A stretch of DNA of 64,000 nucleotides from Lachnospiraceae bacterium 3-1. Its GTDB lineage: Bacteria; Bacillota; Clostridia; Lachnospirales; Lachnospiraceae. A program made the position numbers and the translations under genes. The notes beneath the pieces were generated by a model. That model ran no database searches. It saw only the letters and a list, made by a program, of their open reading frames with translations, and was not told the DNA's origin. The stretch lies in contig KE159572.1 in assembly GCA_000403255.2 (NCBI GenBank), positions 62,001 through 126,000 on the forward strand, in the 5' to 3' direction. Below are positions 33,931-41,326 of this stretch, piece by piece; the first letter of the stretch is position 1, and each line of letters starts with the position of its first letter.

Positions 33931-34587
33931 ATGACAAACGAGGAATATTATACGTTTATTCAGCCTTATGCAGATGCCAGTGAAGTGCTGCTTGCCAGGC
34001 TGAATGTGTTAAAGCATAATCTGTATAGTGAATCAGCCGGACAGCCCATCCATACGATTCAAAACCGGATTAAGGAAAAGGACAGCATGGAAGGAAAGCT
34101 TAAGAAAAAGAAGAAAGAACCTACCGTCATGAACGCGAAGGACTATTTGCAGGATATTGCGGGGATACGGGTAATCTGTTATTTTGTTGAGGATATTTAT
34201 AATCTTGCGGACGCTTTAAAGCGACAAACAGATTTGATTGTAATTCGGGAATGTGATTATATTTCTGACCCTAAGCCCAATGGATACCGGAGTTACCACA
34301 TTATTGTGGGAGTTCCGGTATACTGTCTGGACGGAATGGAATACTTTCCGGTGGAAATCCAATTTCGCACCATGTCAATGGATTTTTGGGCAAGCATGGA
34401 ACATCGTGTCCTTTATAAAATGGAACGGGATGACAGGGAGAAGATAGCGGCAGAATTAAAAGAGTATGCAGAGAATTTGGTAAACATTGAAAGACGATTT
34501 GCCCAATATAGCCATGGGCTGGGAGAGCATATACCGGCAATATCCACAGGAAAAGAGAATGAGGAAGCCATGCTTTGGAATGCATAA
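33931..34587 (+). CDS. Small alarmone synthetase, RelQ/RelP-like (p)ppGpp synthetase
   Basis: 218 residues consisting of a RelA/SpoT synthetase domain alone. Visible motifs are IQNRIKEKDSMEGKLKKKK, DIAGIRVICYF, PKPNGYRSYHIIV and VEIQFRTMSMDFWASMEH, matching substrate and Mg2+ binding segments. It should transfer pyrophosphate from ATP to GDP or GTP. No hydrolase or regulatory domain is present. GAGGAGG lies before the ATG. It ends 26 bases before the retron effector relic, which may be chance or a functional link. Toxic members of the wider family also exist. Confidence 0.9.
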   Translation: MTNEEYYTFIQPYADASEVLLARLNVLKHNLYSESAGQPIHTIQNRIKEKDSMEGKLKKKKKEPTVMNAKDYLQDIAGIRVICYFVEDIYNLADALKRQTDLIVIRECDYISDPKPNGYRSYHIIVGVPVYCLDGMEYFPVEIQFRTMSMDFWASMEHRVLYKMERDDREKIAAELKEYAENLVNIERRFAQYSHGLGEHIPAISTGKENEEAMLWNA

Positions 34588-34612: not shown

Positions 34613-35401
34613 ATGAAAGAAGAATCAATACAGGCATCTATGGTGAAATTTTATGAGGAAAATAATATTCATCCTGAAAGATATACAGATAGCATGGAAA
34701 AACATTATTTGGAAGGCTTGTAATGGTGAAATAGGCAAAGACCAATTGGTAGAGGCATATAGTAAAGTTGCCTTAGAGAAAGTTACCCAGATGGAGACCA
34801 TTGTTTTTGCTGATGATATTGTGGCTACTGGAGTTACCCTGAAAGGAACCATCAAGGGGTTATTTTGAAAGATTTCCCAAAGATAATTTTTTATTCTATA
34901 GGAAAGACCTTGTCACGCTAACGCGTGAAAGTATCTTTCCTATAGAATAAAAAAGCTCTTATCGCACTGCGGCGGGGATGAAATCTGTCGCAAAGCGACC
35001 CGCCGCAGGCGGAGAATCCTGCAAAGCAGGATTCTTTCTTGCATACAAAATTTTTTGCCACAGGCGTTTTGGCAACCAAGCGAGGGGAACGGTTCATTGG
35101 GAGCTTAAAGAAAGAAGCCGAAAGCGCTGTTTTGAAATATGAAGAACAGGTAGGAAGAGACGAAAATGGAAAAAGCTATGTGATGGGATATGAAGAGAGT
35201 AAGTTACTAGTGGGATTTCATTATGAAACCCCAAACAATACATTGTGTACATTCTGGCGGCATGGAGAAAAACATGTTCCGCTGTTTGCAAGGAGTGGAA
35301 ATCAGAGGATATCGTTACAGGAAATTATCAACAAGAGGAAAAAGAAGCGTAAAAATGCATATAAGATAGCATCCGTCGAGGTAAAAAATGAAAGTCAGTG
35401 A
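34613..35401 (+). pseudogene. Retron effector, phosphoribosyltransferase-like (PRTase), inactivated
   Basis: Three pieces of one gene are readable. Piece 1 (34613-34722) ends HYLEGL and then shifts frame. Piece 2 reads NGEIGKDQLVEAYSKVALEK and the PRPP-loop-like ETIVFADDIVATGVTLKG, then shifts again at a GGGG run near 34855; dropping one G restores GYFERFPKDNF. There a 156-bp element is inserted. Piece 3 resumes with FFATGVLATKRGERFIGSLK and the family-typical FHYETPNNTLCTFW and VPLFAR. Two frameshifts plus an insertion make it dead. In type III-like retrons this protein is the toxic effector, paired with a winged-helix protein. Confidence 0.75.
34893..35048. mobile_element. 156-bp palindromic element inserted in the PRTase gene
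   Basis: The element is bracketed by AATTTTTT at 34885-34892 and 35049-35056, an 8-bp target duplication. It opens with ATTCTATAGGAAAGA paired to TCTTTCCTATAGAAT, and contains CTGCGGCGGG / CCCGCCGCAG and AATCCTGC / GCAGGATT stems. It has no coding capacity, so it must have moved with help from another transposase. Shorter relatives lie at 37673, 42598 and 57495. Confidence 0.7.
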
Positions 35402-35684
35402 AAAGATGATTTTGACGTACATTAATAAATACAAGGAGATGAATTTTGATATTTTAAGTAAGGAGCTTGGGCTTCCAGTGAGTTCTTTATTGGGAGTGGC
35501 AGATGGGTTATTACAGAATGGGTATATCAAAAGCGTGGACCAGGAGTTTTTTGTCACAGAAAAGGGGAAAAAGGAAGCGTATGGGTTCTGGAATGAAATC
35601 AGCATCGTGGAAGAGGAGGACACAAAACAAGATTTTTCGTGGGACGAATTGTATATTCCCAAAAATTTCCTAGAAAAAATATAG
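35388..35684 (+). CDS. Retron-associated winged-helix protein
   Basis: 98 residues. Residues about 5-65 form a winged helix (NFDILSKELGLPVSSLLGVA, LLQNGYIKSVDQEFFVTEKG), with an acidic C-terminal tail (DFSWDELYIPKNF). The ATG overlaps the end of the PRTase gene by 14 bases. In type III-like retrons a small winged-helix protein accompanies the PRTase effector, and together they are thought to be controlled by the RT-msDNA complex. This copy looks intact, unlike its partners. Confidence 0.75.
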   Translation: MKVSEKMILTYINKYKEMNFDILSKELGLPVSSLLGVADGLLQNGYIKSVDQEFFVTEKGKKEAYGFWNEISIVEEEDTKQDFSWDELYIPKNFLEKI

Positions 35685-35700
35685 AAAGAAAAGATATTTG

Positions 35701-35709
35701 TGATATAAT
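35701..35709 (+). promoter_or_regulatory. Extended -10 promoter of the retron RNA
   Basis: TGATATAAT is an exact extended -10 element (TG-N-TATAAT). It ends eight bases before the a1 arm of the retron RNA, placing the start of transcription at or next to a1. No good -35 is visible, as allowed for extended -10 promoters. Confidence 0.6.
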
Positions 35710-35716
35710 GTAGCAG

Positions 35717-35866
35717 GAGCGGCTGGATTGGGGTGTATTCGCCTCCTTGAAAAAAGGTACTAACATTGTAGTGTGGCTGAATTGCTCGCCTGGAAAAACG
35801 TCGGCTTACAACACAGCCACACTACATGATGTTTTGGATGAGATTTATTTTATGAGGCAGCCGCTC
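35717..35866 (+). ncRNA. Retron msr-msd RNA
   Basis: GAGCGGCTG (a1, 35717-35725) is perfectly complementary to CAGCCGCTC (a2, 35858-35866). Between them are small msr hairpins (GGGGTG/CGCCTC near 35730-35745; CCTT/AAGG near 35744-35756) and a long msd stem: GTAGTGTGGCTG (35768-35779) pairs perfectly with CAGCCACACTAC (35814-35825) around a 34-base loop. The layout a1-msr-msd-a2 directly before a reverse transcriptase gene is diagnostic of a retron. About 150 nt. The branching G cannot be fixed by eye; candidates lie just after a1 (35725-35732). Confidence 0.78.
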
Positions 35867-35881
35867 TATTTTGGAGAACAC

Positions 35882-36410
35882 ATGGAAAAGGAAATTTACA
35901 TAAGAAGATTCAAGAAAGTACACGCAGGAATATATCAATGTATGTGCAGAATATGCTGCCAATCTGTTTAATAAAAATTTACCAGTGATATTTGATGGAT
36001 ATCATTTGTATCGTGTGCTTAAGATGGAGAATATAGATCCTGATTTTTGTCAGGAATTTACAATTACTGGAAAAAGAGGAAAGACCAGAAGGATATCTGC
36101 TCCTAGCAGGAGTTTAAAGATAAGGCAGCGATGGGTCTTAGACCATATTTTGTATCAAATTTCAGTGGCTGAGTGTTGTGAGGGTTTTTTGAAAAATCAT
36201 TCTATTTGCACCAATGCAAAAAATCATATTGGATACAACCAGAGCCTGAATCTGGATATCAAAGATTTTTTTCCAAGCATCACACAGGATAGAGTGTTTC
36301 AAGTATTTCATGAAATGGGATATAGTACAGATGCCGCAAGAGGGTTGGCTTCTCTTTGCTGTCATGAGGGCAAATTACCCCAAGAATTAAATGAGATATT
36401 ATGGGAATGA
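35882..36410 (+). pseudogene. Retron reverse transcriptase, frameshifted and truncated
   Basis: ATG at 35882 reads MEKEIYIRRFKK and then loses frame near 35912; the next frame gives KYTQEYINVCAEYAANLF, LPVIFDGYHLYRVL, GKTRRISAPSRSLKIRQRW and NLDIKDFFPSI. These are RT motifs 0 to 2 of retron enzymes. The chain reaches motif 3 (LASLCCHEGKLPQ) and stops at 36410, where GAPTSP and the later YADD catalytic motif should follow. Removing one A in the early A-rich run restores the frame, but the 3-prime deletion cannot be rescued. No msDNA can be made by this copy. Confidence 0.78.
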
Positions 36411-36502: not shown

Positions 36503-37588
36503 ATGGAGAGGAATACATTATTAATTGTTGATGATATTGAAATAAACCGGGAAATGCTGAAATTTATTTTTGAAGAGCAGTTTGAGGTTCTGGAAGCTGA
36601 GGATGGTGAGACAGCCATTCAATTGCTGGAAGAAAAGCAAGAGCAGATTGTATTAATGTTTTTGGATGTCATTATGCCAGGTAAGTCTGGATTGGATGTG
36701 CTGGAATATATGGTGGAAAAGAAATATATAGATTATATACCAGTCATTATTATTACTGGGGAGGCTTCTGCAGATACTGAGTTAAAAGCGTACGAATATG
36801 GCGCCTCTGATATTGTATATAAGCCCTTTACCCCTAAAGTGGTTATGCGGCGTACCATGAATATTATTGAACTGTTTTCCCATAGAATTGACATTGAAAA
36901 GAAATTGGAAAAACGTACAAAACAGCTTCGGGAGAGCAGGGAGAAATTAAAAAAGAATAATGATTTTCTGATTAATGCCCTTAGTTCAGTCGTAGAATTT
37001 CGCAGCTTGGAATCTGGAGAACATATTCAGCGCGTGAAATATTATACCAGTGTGCTGTTGAAATATCTGGTTAAATTTTATCCAGAGTATGAGCTGTCAG
37101 AAGAAGATGTGGAATTGATTATTAGTGCATCGGCTTTACATGATTTGGGAAAAATTGCGATTCCAGACAGCATTTTATTAAAGCCAGGCAGACTGACCCA
37201 GGAAGAATTTGAAGAGATGAAAAAGCACACGGTTTATGGATGTGATCTTTTAGAGAAATTTAAGCAGGAAGAGGACAGCTTTTATCGTTATTGCTATGAT
37301 ATATGCAGATACCATCATGAACGGCATGATGGAAAGGGCTATCCTGATGGTTTGACGGGAGAAAATATTCCAATCTGCGCCCAGATTGTTTCTATTGCGG
37401 ATGTTTATGATGCATTAGTCAGCAAACGTGTGTATAAGGCGCCCTATGAGGTGAATGAAGCAGCACGTATGATTCTGGAAGGGGAGTGCGGCGTCTTTTC
37501 TCCTCAGATTCTGGATTGCTTTCAATTAGCAAAAGAAGAATTTTTCCAGGCCACCCAGACGAAACTGTCCTTTGCAGATGTTGGATAA
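36503..37588 (+). CDS. Response regulator with HD-GYP c-di-GMP phosphodiesterase domain
   Basis: 361 residues. The receiver domain (about 1-122) has D10-D11, phosphoacceptor D55 in FLDVIMPG and a late Lys in YKPFTP. After a coiled linker, an HD-GYP domain (about 155-345) shows SALHDLGKIAIPD and HHERHDGKGYPDGL, the metal-binding and GYP signatures. It should degrade cyclic-di-GMP under control of a sensor kinase not found here. AAAGGAG precedes the ATG, and a strong terminator follows. The GGDEF and EAL proteins further on are likely members of the same signalling network. Confidence 0.92.
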   Translation: MERNTLLIVDDIEINREMLKFIFEEQFEVLEAEDGETAIQLLEEKQEQIVLMFLDVIMPGKSGLDVLEYMVEKKYIDYIPVIIITGEASADTELKAYEYGASDIVYKPFTPKVVMRRTMNIIELFSHRIDIEKKLEKRTKQLRESREKLKKNNDFLINALSSVVEFRSLESGEHIQRVKYYTSVLLKYLVKFYPEYELSEEDVELIISASALHDLGKIAIPDSILLKPGRLTQEEFEEMKKHTVYGCDLLEKFKQEEDSFYRYCYDICRYHHERHDGKGYPDGLTGENIPICAQIVSIADVYDALVSKRVYKAPYEVNEAARMILEGECGVFSPQILDCFQLAKEEFFQATQTKLSFADVG

Positions 37589-37817: not shown

Positions 37818-37988
37818 ATGAAAAAGACAATTTCTATAAGCATACGGATGAGTGAAGAAGAATTGGAAAAATTAAAAACAGCCGCTAGATTGGAAGCATA
37901 TGCTTCATATAGTGAATTTATTAGAAGAACAGCTTTAATAGAGGCAAGGCACATTATTGAGAAGAATGGAGAAAAGAAGGATGACTAA
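37818..37988 (+). CDS. Ribbon-helix-helix protein upstream of the restriction system
   Basis: 56 residues. The beta strand TISISIRMSEEELEKLKTAA and the helix SYSEFIRRTALIEA match ribbon-helix-helix DNA-binding proteins of the antitoxin/DUF1778 kind. GGAGG lies seven bases before the ATG. The end overlaps the start of the restriction-methyltransferase gene by eight bases, so both are translated together. It probably controls the operon, like the C proteins of restriction systems. Confidence 0.75.
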   Translation: MKKTISISIRMSEEELEKLKTAARLEAYASYSEFIRRTALIEARHIIEKNGEKKDD

Positions 37989-39960
37989 TAAATCTATCAT
38001 AACTGTTCCTGAGGGGAAACTTTTAGATTTTATTACTAAAAAAATTGTCAATGATAATCCAGAAGAATATGTAAGGCAGAATATAGAGAAAGCTCTAGTT
38101 CGGCAGTATAAATATCATATCGAAGATTGTGCACCTGAAGTAACAATAAAAGTAGGGTCTGCAAATAAAAGAGTAGATATTGTAGTGTTTGAACCAGGAA
38201 GTCATCATAAACAAGAAAATGCTTTAATTTTAATTGAAACAAAGAAAGCTAAAACAAATCCACATGGAAAAAAGGATGGAATTGAACAATTAAAATCTTA
38301 TATGGCAGCATGTTTAAATGCTCAGTTTGGATTATGGACAAACGGAGATGATAGGCACTGTTTTGCGAAACGAAAAAGAGAAGGTACTTTTTTTTATGAA
38401 GAAATTCCTGAAATACCATCTTGTGGTCAAAGCGAGAATGATTTATATAAACCTAAGCGAAAAAATTTGCAAATTGCTACGGCAGATAATTTGATGTTTG
38501 CTTTTAGAAGATGTCACAATTATATTGCAGGTAATTCTGGTCTACATAAAACAGATGCATTTTGGGAACTTTTAAAGGTTATTTTTACTAAAATAGAGGA
38601 TGAACGCACAGGAGATTTGAATTTTTACGTAACACCAAGTGAATTAAAAAATTCATCTGCTTCAGTTACAACAAAAAGTCGTTTAGAGAAACTTTTTGAT
38701 GAAAAAGTTGTAAAAAAATATCCATCTATTTTTAATACAGATGAAACGAAAACGATAGAATTAACAGCAGATGTTCTTGCATATGTTGTTTCACAATTAC
38801 AAGGGTATTCATTATTGGCGTCGCCGGTTGATGTAAAAGGAGTTGCTTATGAAGAAATAGTGGGATCAAATCTTAGAGGTGACAGGGGAGAATTTTTTAC
38901 TCCAAGAAATGCATGTAAAATGGCCGTTGAGATGTTAAATCCGCAACCAGGAGAGAAGGTTATAGATCCATCATGTGGAACAGGAGGATTTTTAATCACT
39001 GCGATGAATCATGCCTTAAAACAACTTCGAGTAAATGAAACTGAATTGTGGGAGAATACGAATCACCCTAATCCATATGAATTAGAGGAATTTTTTAGAA
39101 AGCGTACAGAATATTTGTCAACATGCGTATTTGGAATTGATATTAATCCATCTCTGGTAAGAGCAGCCAAAATGAATATGGTTATGAATAATGATGGTTC
39201 TGGTGGATTATATCGGGAGAACAGCCTTACGAATCCTAATACATGGGATAATGAAACAAGAAAATATGTAAAATTGGAATCGTTTGATTTAGTATTTACA
39301 AATCCACCGTTTGGAGCAAGCATTTTAATAGATGATGTTAATATTCTCGAACAATACGATTTAGCTGCTGTATGGGATAAAACCGAAGACGGAAAACTTG
39401 TAGTTCGGAAAGATAAATCAAAAGAAGTGATTCTTCAAACAAGTATGCCGCCAGAAATTTTGTTTATTGAAAGATGTATTCAACTTTTGAAACCAGGTAC
39501 TGGTCGCATGGCGATGGTTATACCTAATGGTATACTTAATAATCCCTCTTTGGAATATGTCAGATATTGGTTATTAAAAAATGTTCAAGTCTTGGCAGTG
39601 GTTGATATGCAAAGGGATCTTTTTCAGCCTGGGAATGATACTCAGACATCAATGGTTTTTATGAGGAGATTTGATAAGAATGAAAAAGCGCAGGCAGAAA
39701 AAGAAAATATTAATTATCCCATTTTTATGGCTGTAGCAGAAAAGATTGGACATGACAAAAGAGGCACAGTTATATATAAAAAAGATTCTGATGGAAAGGA
39801 GATTATTTCTCATGGTATAAATGCAGAAGAAATCTTAGATCTTGTATCAGGGCAGACAATAATTGTTGATTCTGGTACAGATGATCGAGTGGTAGATGAT
39901 GATATGCCAGAAGTCGTTCAGGCTTATAGGAAATGGCAGGGTGAAGTATATGAAAGTTGA
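37981..39960 (+). CDS. Fused restriction nuclease and N6-adenine methyltransferase (BcgI-like RM subunit)
   Basis: 659 residues from the ATG at 37981 (AGAAGG upstream). The N-terminal 150 residues resemble the HsdR N-terminal nuclease fold: VDIVVF and, further on, ILIETKKA supply the D and E-x-K of a PD-(D/E)xK site. The middle is a type I-like methyltransferase with RGEFFTPR, motif I DPSCGTGGFL and motif IV TNPPFG. A nuclease-methylase chain followed by a separate S gene is the layout of BcgI-type (type IIB) systems, which cut on both sides of a bipartite site. Target sequence unknown. Confidence 0.82.
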   Translation: MTNKSIITVPEGKLLDFITKKIVNDNPEEYVRQNIEKALVRQYKYHIEDCAPEVTIKVGSANKRVDIVVFEPGSHHKQENALILIETKKAKTNPHGKKDGIEQLKSYMAACLNAQFGLWTNGDDRHCFAKRKREGTFFYEEIPEIPSCGQSENDLYKPKRKNLQIATADNLMFAFRRCHNYIAGNSGLHKTDAFWELLKVIFTKIEDERTGDLNFYVTPSELKNSSASVTTKSRLEKLFDEKVVKKYPSIFNTDETKTIELTADVLAYVVSQLQGYSLLASPVDVKGVAYEEIVGSNLRGDRGEFFTPRNACKMAVEMLNPQPGEKVIDPSCGTGGFLITAMNHALKQLRVNETELWENTNHPNPYELEEFFRKRTEYLSTCVFGIDINPSLVRAAKMNMVMNNDGSGGLYRENSLTNPNTWDNETRKYVKLESFDLVFTNPPFGASILIDDVNILEQYDLAAVWDKTEDGKLVVRKDKSKEVILQTSMPPEILFIERCIQLLKPGTGRMAMVIPNGILNNPSLEYVRYWLLKNVQVLAVVDMQRDLFQPGNDTQTSMVFMRRFDKNEKAQAEKENINYPIFMAVAEKIGHDKRGTVIYKKDSDGKEIISHGINAEEILDLVSGQTIIVDSGTDDRVVDDDMPEVVQAYRKWQGEVYES

Positions 39961-41326
39961 AACAATATATAAGAGTGATTTTACAGAAAATCATCGTTTA
40001 GATTCTTCCTTTTACCTTTCATCAGGTGCAACTGCTGATAGGATTATAAAAAATTATATAAAAAGTGGAGAATATATTTGTTTAGGAGATAAGGGGCTTG
40101 CCAATGTGTGGCAGCCAGGAAGAAATATTATAGCGTATGCAGGGGAAAACGAGGAATATGTGCCGTATTTGCAACCATATGATATCTTGGAATATATGCC
40201 AATAGAAAGGTCAAGACTGTCATCCCATCAAAATGATATTGATTCGTTGCGTGTCGAAAAAGGTACTATTCTACAGACATGTTCAGGAAGAAATTTGGGA
40301 CCGCTAGTCATATCAGATAAATATTTAGAGAAGTTTGTTTTTGGAAGTGATTTAATTCGAATCAAAATATATGATGAGGAAATAAAGTATTATGTATATG
40401 CTTTTTTTCTACATGGATAGGTCAGGCGCTTTTGCATTCTAATAAGACAGGATCTGTTGTAGATCATTTGAGCAGAAAAGATATTATGAAAATAAAGATT
40501 CCAATGATTCATAAAAGTCAAAGAAACCATATTGTGAGTTTGATAAAAAAATCTCATGAATGCATGGCAACAGCAAGAGAAAGATTAGATGAATTAAAGA
40601 CAGAATTTGTTGAGAAGAGCAAGGTTGTTTATAATAAGCGCTATCTTCGTAATGGATGGACAGTGGCATTTAATGAACTATCGGGAACCAATAGAATAGA
40701 TGCTGCTTATTATGATCCAGACATGTTTGAAGCAACTATGCAATTAAGAAAGAATGGTGGAATCGAATTAGGAACAATGGCTGATGTAATTAAGCCTGCT
40801 GGAAGGTATAAAACTAATTATGTAGAAAAAGGGTATGGTAAGCCTTTGATTTCTGGAAGGCAATTGTTACAATACCAAATAGTAGGGCTAAAATATTTGC
40901 CATTTAATGAAGAAAATACGTTTGAAAGGTTTAAATTGAAAGATGGATATATTGCATACCCTGCAGATGGAAGGGTTGAGGGAAGACTTGGTACACCTGT
41001 TATGATTACAAAAAATAGAAATGGGTGGTATGCTAGTGGACATATTGGAAGGATAATTGCTCATAAAGGAGTTAAGAATGGTTATTTGTATTTATCATTC
41101 ATCATTCATACATCCAGTGGTACAAGCTCAATTATCAGCTTTAGCATGTGGATCAGTTGTAGATGCAGTATATCCAGAAGATGTTGAAAAAGTAATTATT
41201 CCACCGTGTATAGATTTTCCATATGATGAGGTAGAACGGGCATGGCATTTGTTTGATGAGGCAGAAAAATTAAAAATAGAGGCGTGCGATGAATTGCTTC
41301 AGATTATTAATAACAAAAGAATATAG
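39950..41326 (+). pseudogene. Specificity subunit (HsdS-like) with two slippage-type frameshifts
   Basis: ATG at 39950 overlaps the RM gene by 11 bases. Target-recognition domain 1 runs to a T7 tract (40402-40408), where the frame breaks; one extra T gives YAFFSTWIGQALLHSNKTG. Domain 2 (GTNRIDAAYYDPDMF; KPLISGRQLLQYQIVG) breaks again at a tandem ATCATTC duplication (41094-41107); removing one copy gives LYLSFIHPVVQAQLSALACG. The last part ends at 41326. Full length would be about 455 residues. Both lesions are simple repeats, so the gene may switch on and off by slippage rather than being dead. Confidence 0.75.

What the first reader, a model, noticed from the sequence alone, without database searches (positions are those of the whole stretch)
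35701..35866. Retron RNA gene looks intact although its RT and effector are broken
An exact extended -10 (TGATATAAT) sits just before a1. a1/a2 pair over 9 bp without mismatch, and the msd stem pairs over 12 bp without mismatch. Such perfect stems would be expected to drift if inactivation were old, so loss is probably recent, or the RNA is used by another retron RT in trans.
Basis: partly seen in the sequence, partly recalled or inferred. Interest (0 to 1): 0.65.

Follow-up and report, generated by a model that had tools for sequence, protein, structure and literature searches.

The report
Dead retron with its RNA preserved
This is the decayed remnant of a known bacterial anti-phage system (a type III-A retron): its RNA gene still looks well formed, but simple recent loss of the system explains that, and no other enzyme found in this genome looks able to use the RNA.

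Summary
Window 34.6-36.4 kb is a broken type III-A retron in the order PRTase - winged helix - ncRNA - RT (PADLOC). The ncRNA (35716-35867) keeps a1/a2 (9 Watson-Crick pairs plus a G-U), a 13-bp msd stem and an exact extended -10. Both stems together occur in 0 of 1000 shuffles. A relative with open genes (G448, RT 46-47% identical) shares 33 of 38 msr columns, with paired changes in a1/a2. The RT is frameshifted and has lost its catalytic half. The PRTase is in pieces and carries a 155-bp genomic repeat.

The inference from perfect stems is weak. The repeat copy differs from the consensus of 11 other copies at 1 of 153 sites. At that divergence the stems stay perfect by chance with probability 0.75. 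Recent loss suffices.

The trans idea finds no support in this assembly: 7 of the 8 other RT proteins were scanned, and all 7 match a group II intron model best. "Intact" also needs a caveat. In 6 of 6 nearest relatives with a recognised ncRNA, a1 ends at TAG; here it is TGG. Ordinary decay of a known system.

The parts
34613..34684 (+). probable PRTase N-terminal remnant
   Evidence: 22-residue match to residues 4-25 of the G448 PRTase; 1 of 5000 shuffles of the piece scores as high; no PADLOC family hit
34725..34859 (+). PRTase core remnant with FADDIVATG motif
   Evidence: PRTase_III-A E 6e-6; tblastn with G448 PRTase
34887..35041 (.). 155-bp genomic repeat element inside the PRTase remnant
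   Evidence: 83 match rows in the own genome, own copy and palindromic rows included; 11 other near-full copies fetched; 1 of 153 positions private
35093..35401 (+). PRTase C-terminal remnant
   Evidence: PRTase_III-A E 3e-23; G448 PRTase 41%
35388..35684 (+). winged-helix (WH_III-A) gene, open
   Evidence: PADLOC WH_III-A E 7e-9; 28% to G448 WH
35701..35709 (+). extended -10 (TGATATAAT) of the ncRNA
   Evidence: a -10-like hexamer at the same place in relatives
35716..35867 (+). retron ncRNA (msr-msd), a1 to a2
35717..35725 (+). a1 (pairs with a2 35858-35866)
35726..35726 (+). presumed branching G; preceded by G instead of the A of the six nearest relatives
35726..35763 (+). conserved msr core with two small stem-loops
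   Evidence: 33 of 38 columns identical to G448
35767..35826 (+). msd hairpin, 13-bp perfect basal stem
35858..35866 (+). a2
35882..35930 (+). RT start region, out of frame with the rest (assigned by eye)
35931..36383 (+). RT remnant (up to KLPQ; later motifs including YADD absent)
   Evidence: RT_III-A E 4.8e-43 for 35985-36410; 47% to G448 RT residues 27-177; alignment

Best explanation
A complete type III-A retron once sat between a RelA/SpoT-domain gene and a response-regulator/HD gene. Its ncRNA was transcribed from its own extended -10 promoter, folded through a1/a2, and was primed by the RT on a G next to a1 to copy the msd; the RNA/DNA-RT complex held the PRTase/winged-helix effector in check (transcription and all later steps are inferred from known retrons, not shown here). 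The system then died through several lesions in PRTase and RT. The ncRNA and winged-helix gene have not yet been hit badly because too little time has passed; no present function is needed.
For: Family and gene order: RT_III-A, PRTase_III-A and WH_III-A hits. The same order of open frames is seen in L026/L034 (PRTase and WH matched by tblastn), L028 (PRTase matched), and by eye or annotation in L027, L029 and L031. ncRNA identity: 33 of 38 msr columns shared with G448, and 3 of the first 9 a1/a2 pairs changed on both sides. Death: frame change and loss of the RT after KLPQ; PRTase in pieces with a repeat. Youth: repeat private difference 1 of 153; no stops in 396 retained codons; P(stems all Watson-Crick) 0.75 at d = 0.65% and 0.26 at 3.1%. 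Host site: in 3 of 5 sister genomes fetched the two flanking genes lie about 100-190 bp apart without a retron; in the other 2 a gene lies there, CobD/CbiB by Pfam in the one tested.
Against: The repeat may have entered after the first lesion, so it dates one lesion, not the first. Repeat copies may be homogenised or held by hairpin constraint, which would make them look young. At least four lesions against an unhurt ncRNA and winged-helix gene could hint at protection, although that pattern is not improbable at the inferred divergence. No close strain of the species could be compared.
Confidence: 0.88

Rival explanations
1. The ncRNA is still reverse transcribed in trans by another retron RT of the cell or of a plasmid or phage passing through.
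For: Promoter, a1/a2, msr and msd are structurally whole. Sister species in the genus carry other retron-like RTs, 34-42% identical to the remnant (8 of 28 sister genomes at E <= 1e-10); retron-like RTs occur in 4 phage and 23 plasmid records. The assembly is 96.75% complete.
Against: In the own genome 7 of the 8 other RT proteins were scanned and match the group II intron RT/maturase model best. A G448 retron RT query finds the remnant at E 1.3e-40 and otherwise nothing better than 1.3e-6. The A before the presumed branching G is missing, and Retron-Eco1 is relatively intolerant to changes around its priming guanosine (PMC11754653, passages).
Confidence: 0.03
2. The ncRNA, alone or with the open winged-helix gene, has been kept for another job, for instance as a regulatory RNA or a decoy.
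For: The two open parts, winged helix and ncRNA, are neighbours. The closing a1/a2 pair differs from the relatives on both sides while staying paired.
Against: The neutral expectation already explains the perfect stems. The paired change may predate the loss. No homologue without a retron was found: the msr pattern is in 2 of 395 genomes, the other being G448 with its retron genes open, and a shorter msr pattern is in no viral contig.
Confidence: 0.05
3. The breaks are assembly or base-calling errors and the retron is functional.
For: One RT frame change could be a small error.
Against: The RT lacks everything after KLPQ and no other place in the genome matches its lost part at retron-like similarity. 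The PRTase has lost segments and carries a multi-copy repeat. Long ORFs close by are open.
Confidence: 0.02

Closest known systems
Type III-A retrons (PRTase + winged helix + ncRNA + RT); PADLOC III-A models
   Same: Gene order, RT/PRTase/WH families, ncRNA between WH and RT, a1/a2, small msr stem-loops, msd hairpin.
   Different: RT and PRTase are broken; the ncRNA is short (152 nt) and has G instead of A before the presumed branching G.
   Same: msr 33 of 38 columns, short single-hairpin msd, closest ncRNA found.
   Different: RT only 46-47% identical; 24-bp perfect msd stem; priming context CTAG (here CTGG).
Retron-Bth1 and Retron-Sda1 (PMC12548924, section 10 read)
   Same: Retron loci in print with disrupted or replaced protein parts beside a retained ncRNA.
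   Different: In Bth1 the RT is interrupted by a group II intron yet RT-DNA is made; in Sda1 the RT is present and the effector is replaced. Here the RT has lost its catalytic half.

Membership tests
Type III-A retron | RT of the III-A group beside the ncRNA | tested here: met
   RT_III-A E 4.8e-43, remnant only
Type III-A retron | catalytic RT with YADD motif | tested here: not met
   sequence ends after KLPQ; no remainder found elsewhere in the genome
Type III-A retron | intact PRTase effector | tested here: not met
   pieces only, repeat insertion
Type III-A retron | winged-helix partner | tested here: met
   WH_III-A E 7e-9, open frame
Type III-A retron | ncRNA with a1/a2 and msd hairpin between WH and RT | tested here: met
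Type III-A retron | UAG context of the priming G (from the six nearest relatives and PMC11754653, not a curated criterion) | tested here: not met
   UGG here; UAG at the end of a1 in 6 of 6 nearest relatives; in a wider scan 6 of 10 distinct loci with a top helix scoring 11 or more end at A before G
Type III-A retron | RT-DNA produced and phage defence | not testable with these tools
   needs msDNA preparation and plaque assays
Trans-acting second retron in the same genome | another retron-type RT in the assembly | tested here: not met
   RVT_1, G448 RT and NCBIfam scans; 7 of 8 other RT proteins scanned

The most novel reading that the evidence does not exclude
The retained promoter, ncRNA and winged-helix gene form a stripped-down element that outlives its own RT: the RNA is still made and is either primed by RTs arriving on plasmids or phages or serves as a regulatory RNA, with the UGG priming context as an adaptation to a different partner.
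Probability: 0.04. Interest if true: 0.6.

Novelty: new member of a known kind. Interest (0 to 1): 0.2.

Why it matters
Taken as it is, it is one roughly dated example of how a retron decays: effector and RT are hit, and the small RNA target is missed by chance. It also shows that a 'perfect' RNA stem in a dead locus is weak evidence of use, and it adds a short-ncRNA pair of type III-A retrons (this one and G448) with a promoter-like -10 placed just before a1. If the RNA were still used, it would show that a retron RNA can work apart from its own RT.

Tried and rejected
DNA-level relatives: none in 60 other relatives; in phages and plasmids the locus query matched only over the repeat element, and ncRNA-only queries gave one and five hits at E 2 and 6. 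Rfam gave one sub-threshold UnaL2 hit and no retron family. The genome-contig scan returned L023, not an RT on inspection. As single sequences the RT and PRTase pieces found no relative in viral contigs; the RT alignment A1 found 61 loci there, 23-42% identical. The winged helix found none in plasmids.

Same-genus retron-like RTs were put aside: L015 has a SWIM-like neighbour and is probably type XIII (from memory, by eye), too distant for the ncRNA question. A MAFFT alignment of the two closest ncRNAs misplaced a2, so pairing was compared by script. An early idea that the fragment was truncated on arrival was dropped when a PRTase N-terminal match appeared on the 5' side. Three paper searches meant to find degenerate, orphan or trans-used retron RNAs listed 0, 4 and 1 papers; none looked on the subject from its listing, and none of these was opened.

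That choice leaned on the motif itself. I gave 18 of the 61 viral loci and all 7 loci. Among distinct loci whose top helix scored 11 or more there, 6 of 10 end at A before G (L052; L056 with L057 and L058, which print the same; L059; L063; L081; L116). L054 runs one pair further, through a TAG. L065, L067 and L113 show another context. The other viral loci had weaker helices, and L114, L115, L117-L119 printed no result. For the six nearest relatives (L026-L031) I had marked the site by eye; an unanchored scan then put the end of the best helix at TA before G in 5 of 6 and two bases short of it, before the TAG, in L031. L024 and L025 were left out because no ncRNA was recognised there. The repeat count is also capped: 40 of 119 candidates were scored, and a twelfth copy at 82% identity was not fetched.

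Full report
What is there. Between a RelA/SpoT-domain gene (33931-34587) and a response-regulator/HD gene (36503-37588) lie the remains of a type III-A retron. PADLOC assigns the RT remnant (35985-36410) to RT_III-A (E 4.8e-43), 35039-35401 to PRTase_III-A (1.9e-23) and 35388-35684 to WH_III-A (7e-9). The RT reading frame changes near 35.93 kb and the match to a full-length RT ends after KLPQ at 36383, so the GAPTSP and YADD parts are missing. The PRTase survives as a probable N-terminal scrap (34613-34684; 1 of 5000 shuffles as good), a core piece (34725-34859) and a C-terminal piece (35093-35401). A 155-bp repeat lies at 34887-35041; one search lists 83 match rows in the genome (own copy and palindromic rows included, 40 of 119 candidates scored), 11 of them near-full copies that were fetched.

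The ncRNA. a1 (35717-35725) and a2 (35858-35866) pair over 9 Watson-Crick pairs and a flanking G-U, and this is the best far-spanning helix in an unanchored scan. The msd basal stem is 13 bp. A stem of at least 12 bp and a far-spanning stem of at least 9 bp occur together in 0 of 1000 dinucleotide shuffles, singly in 1 and 7. The fold has z = -5.2. The extended -10 ends 16 nt before the presumed branching G.

Comparison. Among genomes searched with the RT remnant (29 genus, 397 family, 392 order, 388 phylum, overlapping sets with different E-value limits) none more than 48% identical was found. One of the best, G448 (L026/L034), holds a PRTase-WH-ncRNA-RT operon with open genes. Its msr shares 33 of 38 columns with the window, and an msr pattern with up to 3 mismatches occurs in 2 of 395 genomes, the window's and G448. 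Of the first 9 a1/a2 pairs, 3 differ on both sides between window and G448 and all 9 pair in both. So this is a genuine retron RNA that was under selection in the past. A TATAAT-like hexamer 13-22 nt before the presumed branching G is found in 7 of 8 ncRNAs (1 of 5000 mononucleotide shuffles reaches 7; L116 was added after its sequence was seen).

Does perfection of the stems mean use? No. If the 22 perfect pairs drift freely, the chance that all remain Watson-Crick is 0.75 at 0.65% divergence, 0.64 at 1%, 0.26 at 3.1% and 0.11 at 5%. The repeat gives a clock: 1 of 153 positions of the window's copy differs from the consensus of the 11 others, fewer than any of those copies (3 to 15). The one-sided 95% bound on that divergence is about 3.1%. 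No stop is found in 396 retained codons (two frames overlap by 11 nt), which bounds divergence at 5.3%; stems plus stops together give 3.0%. These clocks have weak points: the repeat may be younger than the first lesion and may be homogenised, and the winged-helix gene may still be selected.

In trans? Of 13 RVT_1 matches in the own genome, one is the remnant. The other 12 fall in 8 RT proteins of 435 to 636 aa. Seven of these were scanned and hit the NCBIfam group II intron RT/maturase model best: 4 over its cut-off, 3 below it but far above the retron models. The eighth (L007) is nearly identical to L006 by eye and was not scanned. A full G448 retron RT finds the remnant at E 1.3e-40 and otherwise only five places in these proteins at 1.3e-6 or weaker. 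So no second retron RT was found in an assembly that is 96.75% complete. Retron-like RTs do occur in 4 phage and 23 plasmid records at under 60% identity, so an outside supplier is conceivable.

A caveat on 'intact'. In the six nearest relatives with a recognised ncRNA, a1 ends at TAG; here the same place reads TGG, and the a2 partner is C instead of T. In a wider scan of 25 loci, 10 distinct ones gave a strong helix; 6 of these end at A before G, one runs through a TAG, and three show another context, so the motif is a regularity of the near relatives, not a law. PMC11754653 (passages read) reports that the Retron-Eco1 ncRNA is relatively intolerant to changes around the priming guanosine and names a UAGC sequence that includes it; PMC12887533 (passages) reports that changing the priming G abolishes Retron-Eco8 defence. 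The window's RNA may thus be poorly primable. Against that, both sides of the pair differ, which is unlikely as two neutral hits and suggests a variant tolerated while the system worked. This cannot be settled here.

Site. Five sister genomes were fetched, of 19 searched. In 3 of 5 the two flanking genes are about 100-190 bp apart; in 2 of 5 a gene lies between them, CobD/CbiB by Pfam in the one tested. Within that sample the retron is particular to this genome.

Prior work. PMC12548924 (section 10 read; passages) describes Retron-Sda1, with a III-A1-like RT but a replaced effector, and Retron-Bth1, whose RT is interrupted by a group II intron and which still makes RT-DNA. Retron loci with damaged or replaced parts and a kept ncRNA are therefore in print.

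Verdict. Observation confirmed, 'recent loss' supported, 'use in trans' not supported. An ordinary remnant of a known kind of system.

Noticed in passing
L025:1171-2352 (G316): A type III-A retron whose winged-helix and RT regions form one 393-aa open frame, leaving no room for the ncRNA that sits between them in relatives; where its RNA lies is unknown.
   Followed up: partly
window 34887-35041; copies across G000: A 155-bp palindromic repeat family, also in parts (about 68-bp units); parts of it match 8 fecal phage contigs and a Roseburia plasmid at about 76-83% over some 80-110 bases.
   Followed up: partly
window 39896-41326: Downstream of a gene with restriction-subunit and N6-methylase domains (37957-39960) the next gene is split into three ORFs, as a broken or varying specificity subunit would be (by eye); Pfam gives no hit to the pieces.
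   Followed up: no
L024:955-2130 (G398): A full-length III-A RT with no PRTase or winged-helix ORF seen upstream and a transposase-like fragment (by eye) in their place, near a contig end.
   Followed up: no
L130:6951-7937 and the matching site in L131: The RelA/SpoT - HD gene interval that holds the retron remnant here holds a CobD/CbiB gene in sister genome G018 (Pfam) and a similar ORF in G015; a variable site.
   Followed up: partly
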